From positions 15,269,461-15,333,460 of the forward strand of contig NC_135561.1 of assembly GCF_964340395.1 (NCBI RefSeq): a stretch of 64,000 nt of DNA, written 5' to 3'. Position numbers and translations under genes: made by a program. This document shows positions 15,901-62,535 of the stretch, one piece after another (within the stretch, counting starts at the first letter, position 1; the number at the start of each line of letters is the position of its first letter). The notes under the pieces were generated by a model. It worked only from the letters and a program-made list of their open reading frames with translations. It made no database searches and was not told the DNA's origin. Origin of the DNA: Glandiceps talaboti (Eukaryota; Hemichordata; Enteropneusta; Spengelidae).

Positions 15901-18900
15901 GACAAGAATTGGTAGTTTGTGGACACAGGACTATTAATTTTGAGCTCTGATATAAGCATTAGTATCATGTTAATAGTAGTTATTTTGTTTGATTTTACAG
16001 CAATGTACTTATTGGAGATTGTCTTCATGTTTCTACTATTGCCATTTATGTATTTCTACTATGAAGAGTATGATGAAGATTCAACCACTAAAAGTGTAAG
16101 TTATTATAAACCTCTAGTTAGGTTCAATATTGGTCTCCATAGTAACACCATGTATTCTGTAAAAGTGTAAGTTATTATAAACCTCTAGTTAGGTTCAATA
16201 TTGTCTCCATAGTAACACCATGTATTCACTAAAAGTGTAAGTTATTATAAACCTCTAGGTAGGTTCAATATCGGTCTCCATAGTAACAATATTGGTCTCC
16301 ATAGTAACACCATGTATTCTGTAAAAGTGTAAGTTATTATAAACCTCTAGTTAGGTTCAATAGTGGTCTCCGTAGTAACAATATTGGTCTCCATAGTAAC
16401 ACCATGTATTCTGTAAAAGTGTAAGTTATTATAAACCTCTAGTTAGGTTCAATATTGTCTCCATAGTAACACCATGTATTCACTAAAAGTGTAAGTTATT
16501 ATAAACCTCTTGGTAGGTTCAATATTGGTCTCCATAGTAACACCATGTATTCTGTAAAAGTGTAAGTTATTATAAACCTCTAGTTAGGTCCAGCATTGGT
16601 CTCCATAGTAACAATATTGGTCTCCATAGTAATGCCATGTATTCACTAAAAGTGTAAGTTATTATAAACCTCTAGTTAGGTTCAATATTGGGCTCCATAG
16701 AATCACCTTGTATTCTCTGTCACATGATTACTGACAAGTGCTTTGGAATTGAGGACCTGATTCTGATTCTATGCATGTTACAGCAGCAATCCCTCATCTC
16801 GGTTCATTTGTTGGCTTCTCCTATCGGATAGAGATTGCCTGTCGCCACCTCCTGTGTAGATCCCTAGTCTATCAATATCTACTTGGTGTACCCAGGTCCA
16901 TAAAATGTTCTACCTCTGTTGATTTCATGGTCTTTCCCCATTCAGTCCACTGAAGAAATCAATTTAGTCTAGACACAATATTTGGACATGGTAACATTTC
17001 CTGCAAGAATGAATGTTCATACTCAGTAATGAATAGTTCTACTCACAGAGTCAAACAGTTTCTTGGAAGCAAATCCCCAAATCTCCACATACATAATAAC
17101 TCCTTCTTTTCTTTATATTTGTCCACAATAGCGTATTTGTGGAGCTCTGAAGTTCACCATTGTGTTTGTGATTATAGCGGGTGTGTTGCTACTTATAGGG
17201 TAAGTATACTGTAATAAAATGTTAATAAAAGTGACAATATACAAAACTGAAATACCATGGTTCTTAATTGAGACCCAGTACCCCACCCCACCATATTTGA
17301 GCCCAAGTAGGAACATTAACATTGCCTACTTTCACCAAGAAATTTTGTGTTTTGCCTTTGTACATATTATGTATAAGCCTGAGTAGTTTACTTGGACTGA
17401 AAATTGTCGCACAAAGATATTAGCGAGAAGACAATGTATACTTTTAGACAGAGATGTATATACAGATATAGTGATAGAAGTGAAAAAGACCGAGAATTTG
17501 CAATATGTAGATATTACAAAATGTACTTATATACTACCCATAAACACAGAATTTGATTAGTAAGGGGCATTTGTCAAGTTGGCAAATAACTTTGTATTCT
17601 ATTTGCAGTGCATTTATACCAACCCAAGCACCACCAAACAAAAATGAAACAGAATGGCAGAAATTACAGGATCTATTTGAAGGGTTAGGAACAAACCGTA
17701 AGTTACTACTCTGTACAGTATATTGTCAGCTGTGTCTTCATTTAACTACACTGTATGACTTTTGATCAAATTGAAACTTCAAAAGTACTTGGCAGATCTA
17801 CATAAAAAAAAACATCGTCTTATTATTATTATTAATAACAGCTTGGATTTCAGTATTAGTTAAAATATACTGGTTGTGTTCTAATATACTGTATTCCAGT
17901 TTTTATATTTGCACGAATACTTGCAGTGTTCTCTATGCTCGTGAAAGTGCAGCTGAAAACACTGCAAGCACCAGTGCAAATACCCCTGACTACCCACACT
18001 GGTGGAACTCACATGGAATGGGGTTCTGTTATTATTACATATTTTTATCCAAAACAGTAAATTTCTATAACAATATACTGTTCTCAGCCCCCCCCCCCCC
18101 CCACTTGAATAACTTCTGTGTTGAAAGAAATACTCTGTTCGTTAACAAGTGCCATTGCCACTGCCATGACTGTAGATGGTGTCAACACTCCAGACACTTG
18201 CTTATTCTTGCCATAGAGGGCACTTTTCTGCAAAATGTAAAGGGCATGTGAAAATAAAAATATTTTTTTATTTTGATGTCGGAGCTGAAAATTTGGGTTG
18301 GTCAGGTAATGAGAAACAGAAAAAAAAATAGGGTCATCCTAATCAGTATAATATTGATTTGGTTTTCAATCTGTCAGATGGAGAGAATGCAGTGTCATTT
18401 TGCATTAATTGCCTGACTCTGATTGGCATGCTGTTACTTGTTGTGTACACGGTAAGTCGAACTTTGATTGGCATGGTGTTACTTGTTGTGTACATGGTAA
18501 GTTTAACTTGGTGTTACTTGTTGTGTACATGGTAAGTCGAACTTTGATTGGCATGGTGTAACTTGTTGTGTACATGGTAAGTCTAACTTGGTGTTACTTG
18601 TTGTGTACATGGTAAGTCTAACTTGGTGTTACTTGTTGTGTACATGGTAAGTCGAACTTTGATTGGCATGGTGTTACTTGTTGTGTACATGGTAAGTCTA
18701 ACTTTGATTGGCATGGTGTAACTTGTGTACATGGTAAGTCTAACTTTGATTGGCATGGTGTTACTTGTTGTGTACATGGTAAGTCTAACTTTGATTGGCA
18801 TGGTGTAACTTGTTGTGTACATGGTAAGTCTAACTTTGATTGGCATGGTGTAACTTGTTGTGTACATGGTAAGTCTAACTTGGTGTTACTTGTTGTGTAC

Positions 18901-62535: not shown

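What the first reader, a model, noticed from the sequence alone, without database searches (positions are those of the whole stretch)
16086..60221. Minisatellites built from exon ends plus splice donors recur in five introns of two genes
LMBRD1 introns 5, 8, 9 and 13 and one kinase-gene intron all begin with a tandem array whose unit spans the exon-intron junction: 10-45 bases of exon, the donor, then some intron. Unit lengths (about 75, 45/35, 32, 60, 31 bp) and sequences are unrelated, and the two genes lie on opposite strands, so the arrays arose independently by one kind of event. Together they add roughly a hundred decoy donors. Most tandem repeats would not start at a junction by chance. 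I recall similar 'mirage' minisatellites reported in amphioxus Adh; if so, this window shows the phenomenon is a general genome process.
Basis: partly seen in the sequence, partly recalled or inferred. Interest (0 to 1): 0.88.

Follow-up and report, generated by a model that had tools for sequence, protein, structure and literature searches.

The report
Tandem repeats grown from splice sites
In an acorn worm's genome, short pieces of DNA that straddle the edge of a gene's coding segment have been copied many times in a row, leaving strings of fake splice sites beside the real one; single cases were known from amphioxus, but here they turn up in many genes.

Summary
The LMBRD1 exon chain built here equals, residue for residue, an NCBI protein of the acorn worm Glandiceps talaboti on a contig of the same length. 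Four LMBRD1 introns (5, 8, 9, 13) and one intron of a JAK-like kinase gene begin with tandem arrays whose unit spans exon end, donor and intron. They hold 100 exact decoy donors; use of one gives a premature stop in 99 of 100.

It is not local. Of the 17 TGGTAAGT arrays in a capped list from chromosome C1, 11 start at a coding exon's donor by eye. In 190 kb of sampled DNA, 4 of 40 minisatellites are junction arrays. Such "mirage" minisatellites were described in amphioxus; new are a hemichordate and the genome-wide spread.

Most likely this is hyperactive minisatellite birth (16.5% of sampled DNA), tolerated at junctions because splicing uses the outermost copy. Preference for real donors over same-word sites is uncertain (p 0.005-0.03 by eye, 0.06 by a scorer); targeted birth stays open.

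The parts
16001..16095 (+). LMBRD1 exon 5, donor AAAAGT|GTAAGT
   Evidence: exon chain equals P0001
16086..16715 (+). donor array in LMBRD1 intron 5, units 70-71 and 92 bp, 8 exact donor copies (1 real, 7 decoys)
18378..18451 (+). LMBRD1 exon 8, donor ACACG|GTAAGT
18416..19567 (+). donor array in LMBRD1 intron 8, units mostly 45 and 35 bp, 27 exact donor copies
20071..20196 (+). LMBRD1 exon 9, donor AAAG|GTATGA
20177..20374 (+). donor array in LMBRD1 intron 9, unit 32 bp, 5 exact donor copies plus one mutated; a DNA search of the genome listed only its own place (that search skips common words)
   Evidence: TRF 21542-21880
21892..21994 (+). LMBRD1 exon 11, begins at the end of the acceptor array
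23864..24007 (+). LMBRD1 exon 13, donor CAG|GTTAGT
23963..24957 (+). donor array in LMBRD1 intron 13, unit 60 bp (some 103), 14 exact donor copies
60210..60391 (-). JAK-like kinase exon (GMEYLEKEH...NPIL), donor ATTATG|GTAAGT
58650..60221 (-). donor array in the kinase intron, unit 31 bp, 51 exact donor copies in 58560-60240
58048..58152 (-). next kinase exon ([11 protein letters not shown]...), spliced to the exon before the array; its 3' end was read by eye

Best explanation
These are mirage-type minisatellites. A segment straddling an exon-intron junction was duplicated in tandem and then expanded by slippage or unequal exchange, in a genome where minisatellites arise at a very high rate. 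A duplication over a donor leaves the whole exon and its first donor intact; a duplication over an acceptor leaves the last acceptor and the whole exon intact. The mRNA is unchanged as long as splicing uses the outermost, exon-joined copy, so the array can grow to many units with decoy sites as good as the real one. Shown: anatomy, real junctions, unrelated units, presence in many genes, and donor copies that are kept at least as well as the rest of the unit. Inferred: the duplication mechanism, and that the outermost site is used in transcripts. Open: whether junctions are preferred sites of birth.
For: Junctions verified by homology and by an identical NCBI protein. Decoys match or nearly match the real donor; use of one gives a premature stop in 49 of 50 LMBRD1 cases and 50 of 50 kinase cases. 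Genome: of 17 TGGTAAGT arrays in the tool's first 100 places (C1, 0-32.4 Mb), 11 begin at a coding exon's donor by eye. Searches support five: L038 DCAF1 (3.8e-17), L039 eIF4E3 (6.9e-11) and, below Pfam's cut-offs, L029 ARM_LRRK2 (1.2e-5), L033 aromatic lyase (3.7e-4), L034 fasciclin (6.7e-4); L036 reads as ITIH (recalled). Sampled 190 kb: 4 of 40 arrays on junctions: L007 acceptor of an importin-13-like exon (1e-8), L012 donor of a PINCH LIM exon (1.8e-15), L002 acceptor of an EGF-like exon (by eye), L004 donor (exon call only). Donor words as tandem triples exceed their reversed words (AGGTAAGT 2884 v 1016; TGGTAAGT 4815 v 1739) although as single words they do not (28,973 v 36,815; 35,920 v 38,161); a scrambled word gives 1260 v 1000 as triples.
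Against: No transcript data, so use of the outermost site is not shown. Triple counts are overlapping windows dominated by large arrays; at array level TGGTAAGT exceeds its reversed word only 1.55-fold (17 in 32.4 Mb v 5 in 14.8 Mb, p 0.27), though it exceeds the scrambled word 7-fold (13 arrays in 174.7 Mb) (all from capped lists). A blind motif scan of the 40 sampled arrays found donor-bearing units in 2, no more than controls (5% v 3.9%). Of the five AGGTAAGT arrays listed, one (L027) starts at a clear exon, three are unclear, one is not. L004's exon had no structure match.
Confidence: 0.8

Rival explanations
1. Junction-targeted birth: exon-intron borders are preferred sites of tandem duplication, for example through transcription- or splicing-linked breaks, R-loops or nucleosome edges, so junction arrays are a distinct class.
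For: 5 of 5 LMBRD1 arrays with 2.5 or more copies on junctions; 6 of 18 arrays over two genes against 1.3 expected, P 1.1e-3; 11 of 17 listed TGGTAAGT arrays at real donors against 4 to 6 of 21 isolated TGGTAAGT sites in the sampled DNA, judged by eye, Fisher p 0.005 to 0.028.
Against: By the exon scorer alone the comparison is 10 of 17 against 6 of 21, p 0.06. 0 of 3 inspected new arrays in the extended kinase region on junctions; 4 of 40 sampled arrays is not far above the roughly 1.5 that I expect from an assumed junction density; transcribed DNA in general, not junctions, may be favoured; one word on one chromosome was inspected.
Confidence: 0.28
2. Pure chance by-product: junction arrays occur as often as random placement of very abundant minisatellites predicts; LMBRD1 is an extreme draw noticed because it is striking.
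For: Minisatellites cover 16.5% of 190 kb sampled; kinase gene 1 junction array among the 6 used (10 in the looser list); the window was chosen post hoc; scorer-only comparison p 0.06.
Against: 6 of 18 arrays in the two genes against 1.3 expected (intron number of the kinase gene assumed); 11 of 17 against 4 to 6 of 21 by eye.
Confidence: 0.42
3. The arrays are functional: strings of donors recruit U1 snRNP and help define the exon, or regulate splicing or premature polyadenylation.
For: Donor columns vary less than other unit columns in the five window arrays (3 of 45 v 36 of 194 columns, p 0.035; columns, test; my aligner used only part of the copies, e.g. 20 in intron 8 and 4 in intron 9).
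Against: Units differ from gene to gene and most introns of the two genes lack arrays; homogenisation from the constrained first copy would also keep donors; 14 of 55 acceptor copies matched in L007 have lost their AG; no conservation data from a relative.
Confidence: 0.08
4. Assembly artefact or collapsed allelic copies.
For: Arrays are hard to assemble in general.
Against: Units carry distinct, ordered variants, and arrays occur at unrelated loci on C1, C4, C7, C12 and C14 of a chromosome-scale assembly.
Confidence: 0.03

Closest known systems
'Mirage' minisatellites of amphioxus (Adh3; also reported for globins BflGb6 and BflGb9, troponin C, PGBD5): passages of PMC3087553 and PMC3902484 read; the original Adh report (doi 10.1093/nar/gkf386) is not held and was not read
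   Same: Tandem units spanning an exon-intron border, many with intact AG/GT signals, at donors and at acceptors; units of 10 to about 160 bp.
   Different: Here in a hemichordate, with up to about 120 units, five arrays in one gene, and by sampling in many genes; [quoted passage not shown]
Intron gain by tandem genomic duplication of AGGT-containing exon sequence (PMC4974935, PMC3443670: search listing only)
   Same: Tandem duplication that multiplies splice signals.
   Different: Here the duplicated piece already holds an existing junction, the extra copies lie in the intron, and no new intron is seen.
Intronic minisatellites linked to alternative splicing in C. elegans (CeRep25B; PMC4039745, passages read)
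   Same: Minisatellites in introns near splice decisions.
   Different: There one 24-base family clustered on two chromosomes, for which the passages seen mention no junction sequence; here the exon-derived units differ from array to array.

Membership tests
Mirage minisatellite | Tandem unit spans an exon-intron border | tested here: met
   5 donor arrays with 10-45 exonic bases; the intron-10 array includes the acceptor but no clear exon sequence (4 of the first 12 exon bases match the unit)
Mirage minisatellite | Many repeat units keep AG/GT splice signals | tested here: met
   105 exact donors in five arrays
Mirage minisatellite | Regular splicing is not disturbed (RT-PCR in amphioxus) | not testable with these tools
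   No RNA data; the NCBI protein uses the outermost donors, but that record may be a prediction
Mirage minisatellite | Length instability between haplotypes and somatically | not testable with these tools
   One assembly only
Mirage minisatellite | Both donor and acceptor borders can be duplicated | tested here: met
   acceptor arrays at LMBRD1 intron 10, L002, L007
Intron gain by tandem duplication | An intron absent from relatives, bounded by the duplicated copies | not tested
   Intron positions were not compared with relatives; the arrays lie inside introns and add none

The most novel reading that the evidence does not exclude
Exon-intron junctions are preferred birthplaces of minisatellites in this lineage. 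A transcription- or splicing-linked mechanism seeds arrays at thousands of junctions (4 in 190 kb extrapolates to about 12,400, Poisson range about 3,400 to 31,800), and the same propensity in amphioxus and hemichordates is an old deuterostome trait or has arisen twice. (Probability lowered from 0.22 to 0.20 after the scorer-only comparison gave p 0.06.)
Probability: 0.2. Interest if true: 0.85.

Novelty: new member of a known kind. Interest (0 to 1): 0.6.

Why it matters
Each array is a natural experiment in splice-site choice: up to 50 donors as good as the real one stand right behind it, and almost any use of them would wreck the protein. A genome with thousands of such junctions would let one measure how reliably splicing takes the outermost site, whether donors and acceptors tolerate decoys equally, and how often tandem duplication feeds intron length change or intron gain. 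It also shows that mirages are not an amphioxus peculiarity, and gene prediction in such genomes must expect them.

Tried and rejected
Acceptor word TTTTCAGR as a tandem triple: 357 v 423 reversed, no excess. A strict word is a poor probe for acceptors, so this does not exclude acceptor arrays, which were seen directly. Reversed-word arrays: 5 in the capped list; both edges of four and one edge of the fifth fetched (L046-L054). The exon scorer was run on all nine pieces and put its best interval away from the array word in each; only L048 and L049 were read as text, and L049 holds an exon about 140 bp from the listed word with an unrelated unit. The motif scan of the 40 sampled arrays was uninformative. 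One search listed further candidates: L009, L017 (two), L008, a second array in L004 (3453-3637, which stops about 20 bp short of the acceptor) and lower scores in L002, L007, L010-L013, L017 and the window; I did not accept them, mostly by eye and some without a closer look. Among the 17: none for L031, L035, L041, L043, L045; L040 counted apart as an acceptor array of an antisense G-alpha exon (identity recalled, not searched). L024-L028 were not pooled with the 17. The count 11 of 17 rests on reading by eye for an open frame, an acceptor and a donor; my exon scorer gave 4 or more for 10 of 17, with a wrong frame or site for L034 and L037, and missed L036. The figures 4 to 6 of 21 for isolated sites are judged by eye on the scorer's list, in which 6 of 21 scored 4 or more. 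The 1.5 junction arrays expected in 40 uses an assumed junction density and no call. Six of the eleven exons have no accepted search support (L030, L032, L036, L037, L042, L044). A test whether the introns or arrays are shared with Ptychodera was not possible (no genome held). The AGGTATGT triple did not complete.

Full report
Where it is. The window is C14:15269461-15333460 of a 590.4-Mb genome in 47 contigs. The protein spliced from 16 exons in the window is identical, 534 of 534 residues, to P0001, which NCBI names as a putative lysosomal cobalamin transporter of Glandiceps talaboti on a contig of 24,582,668 bases, the length of C14. The animal is therefore an acorn worm, a hemichordate. 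The next protein in the list, from Ptychodera flava, is 78% identical.

The observation. LMBRD1 exons 5, 8, 9 and 13 each end inside the first copy of a tandem array; so does an exon of a minus-strand gene whose spliced kinase domain matches PF07714 and, per domain, JAK1 best among the structures shown. The splice junctions are fixed by protein homology across them: the alignment to human LMBD1 has at most a one-residue gap near each of the four, and the kinase junction falls in the conserved end of the activation segment. The arrays hold 8, 27, 5, 14 and 51 exact donors. Their units share only words of 12 bp or less, and a DNA search with the intron-9 array listed only its own place, with the caveat that the tool skips common words. 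So these look like separate births, not one mobile family.

The 31-bp array near the end of intron 10 is in register with the acceptor: unit after unit ends in AG, and the last unit ends in TTCTATTTCAG at base 21891, directly before exon 11. LMBRD1 thus has five minisatellites with 2.5 or more copies and all five lie on splice sites, four donors and one acceptor; three two-copy repeats lie elsewhere in introns 1, 5 and 15. By placing units at random in the gene I get about 2e-5 for at least four of five on donors and 5e-6 for five of five on any junction. The window was chosen for being odd, so these are not clean probabilities. A fairer look is the kinase gene, which I followed 30 kb beyond the window. 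Of six arrays that I used there (one at 69814 with only about two copies, one at 80361 upstream of the first exon I recognised) one is on a junction: over both genes 6 of 11 against 1.1 expected, P 2.5e-4. Counting every non-simple array with a unit of 10 bp or more, 6 of 18 against 1.3, P 1.1e-3. Both assume 18 introns for the kinase gene.

Is it general? Three tests. First, whole-genome word counts with the tool's own reversed control: three tandem copies of AGGTAAGT at 20-50 bp spacing occur 2884 times against 1016 for the reversed word, and TGGTAAGT 4815 against 1739. As single words they are not in excess: 28,973 v 36,815 and 35,920 v 38,161. A scrambled word as a triple gives 1260 v 1000, and an acceptor word 357 v 423. 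These are overlapping windows, so big arrays weigh heavily. Counted as arrays in the first 100 places that the tool lists, TGGTAAGT has 17 in the first 32.4 Mb of C1, its reversed word 5 in 14.8 Mb (ratio 1.55, p 0.27), and the scrambled word 13 in about 175 Mb (ratio 7, p 3e-7).

Second, I fetched the upstream edge of these 17 TGGTAAGT arrays (three needed a second fetch). Eleven begin at the donor of what reads as a coding exon with an acceptor and an open frame: L029, L030, L032, L033, L034, L036, L037, L038, L039, L042, L044. Searches support L038 as DCAF1, L039 as eIF4E3, and, below the Pfam cut-offs, L029, L033 and L034. L030, L037, L042 and L044 had no Pfam match and L032 only an unrelated weak one; L036 reads as an ITIH protein (recalled). 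These six stand on frame and splice signals. L040 is an acceptor array of an antisense exon that I read as a G-alpha subunit (recalled). Five show no exon. For comparison, 21 isolated TGGTAAGT sites in the sampled DNA include 4 clear and at most 6 real donors by eye; Fisher's test gives p 0.005 to 0.028. By the exon scorer alone it is 10 of 17 against 6 of 21, p 0.06. Of five AGGTAAGT arrays one starts at a clear exon (L027), three are unclear and one is not.

Third, 19 stretches of 10 kb from 19 contigs, taken at one fixed coordinate (a twentieth contig was too short): 40 minisatellites cover 16.5% of them. Four are junction arrays: L007 (at least 3.1 kb, acceptor, exon matching importin-13), L002 (7 kb, about 124 units, acceptor, EGF-like exon by eye), L012 (donor, exon matching the PINCH LIM domain) and L004 (donor, exon by frame and splice signals; no structure match). 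A blind donor-motif scan of the same 40 arrays saw no excess (2 of 40). Four in 190 kb would mean about 12,400 in the genome, with a range of 3,400 to 31,800; this is an extrapolation.

How it works. Duplicating a segment across a donor leaves the exon and its own donor in place and puts the extra copies into the intron; across an acceptor the last copy keeps the exon. Such duplications are therefore near neutral if splicing keeps to the outermost site. It would have to: of 100 decoys in the window 99 would bring a premature stop (49 of 50 in LMBRD1; 50 of 50 in the kinase). Donor columns vary less than other columns of the units (3 of 45 v 36 of 194, p 0.035, on the part of the copies that my aligner used), so decoy donors are not being weeded out. 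In one acceptor array 14 of 55 matched copies have lost the AG, in another 0 of 68. That exon definition picks the first donor, and that scanning for the first AG would make acceptor decoys riskier, is established knowledge applied here, not a result.

Comparison with what is known. Arrays of this make are called mirages in amphioxus: in Adh3, globins, troponin C and PGBD5, with both borders affected and, in the words of the passages seen, no interference with regular splicing in the cases tested (PMC3087553 and PMC3902484). The original Adh report is not held. Among the papers listed by my searches (several with more hits than were listed) none reported mirages in a hemichordate or a genome-wide count; the library lacks most subscription journals. 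So the kind is known; the hemichordate case, the density and the spread over many genes are what is new. Whether junctions are chosen or merely hit is the open question, and full annotation would settle it.

Noticed in passing
window 26605-27378 (+), LMBRD1 intron 15: 258-aa open frame that reads like the end of a non-LTR retrotransposon reverse transcriptase; identity by eye only.
   Followed up: no
window 34186-34976: 84-bp tandem period typical of C2H2 zinc-finger coding repeats (minus strand suspected); not translated here.
   Followed up: no
window 46162-46785 (+): 208-aa open frame with a phosphoribosyltransferase-like stretch ([22 protein letters not shown]); identity by eye only.
   Followed up: no
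window 50022-50609 (+): 196-aa open frame that contains the possible start MGCCQS, perhaps a lipid-modified protein; by eye only.
   Followed up: no
window 15307-15367 and 22013-22418: An ATTG microsatellite runs up to the acceptor of LMBRD1 exon 4 and a TCCA microsatellite starts 18 bp after the exon 11 donor: simple repeats also crowd junctions here.
   Followed up: no
L016 1-10000; L002, L007: Very large tandem-repeat load: 9,694 of 10,000 bases of L016 are masked as tandem repeats, and single arrays reach 7 kb.
   Followed up: partly
L007 1-3141; L002 1-7052: Acceptor AG reads AA in 14 of 55 matched copies of the L007 array, while 68 of 68 matched copies in L002 keep AG; decoy acceptors may be weeded out in some genes and not in others.
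   Followed up: partly
whole-genome counts: TGGTAAGT and AGGTAAGT as single words are rarer than their reversed words although they are donor consensus.
   Followed up: no
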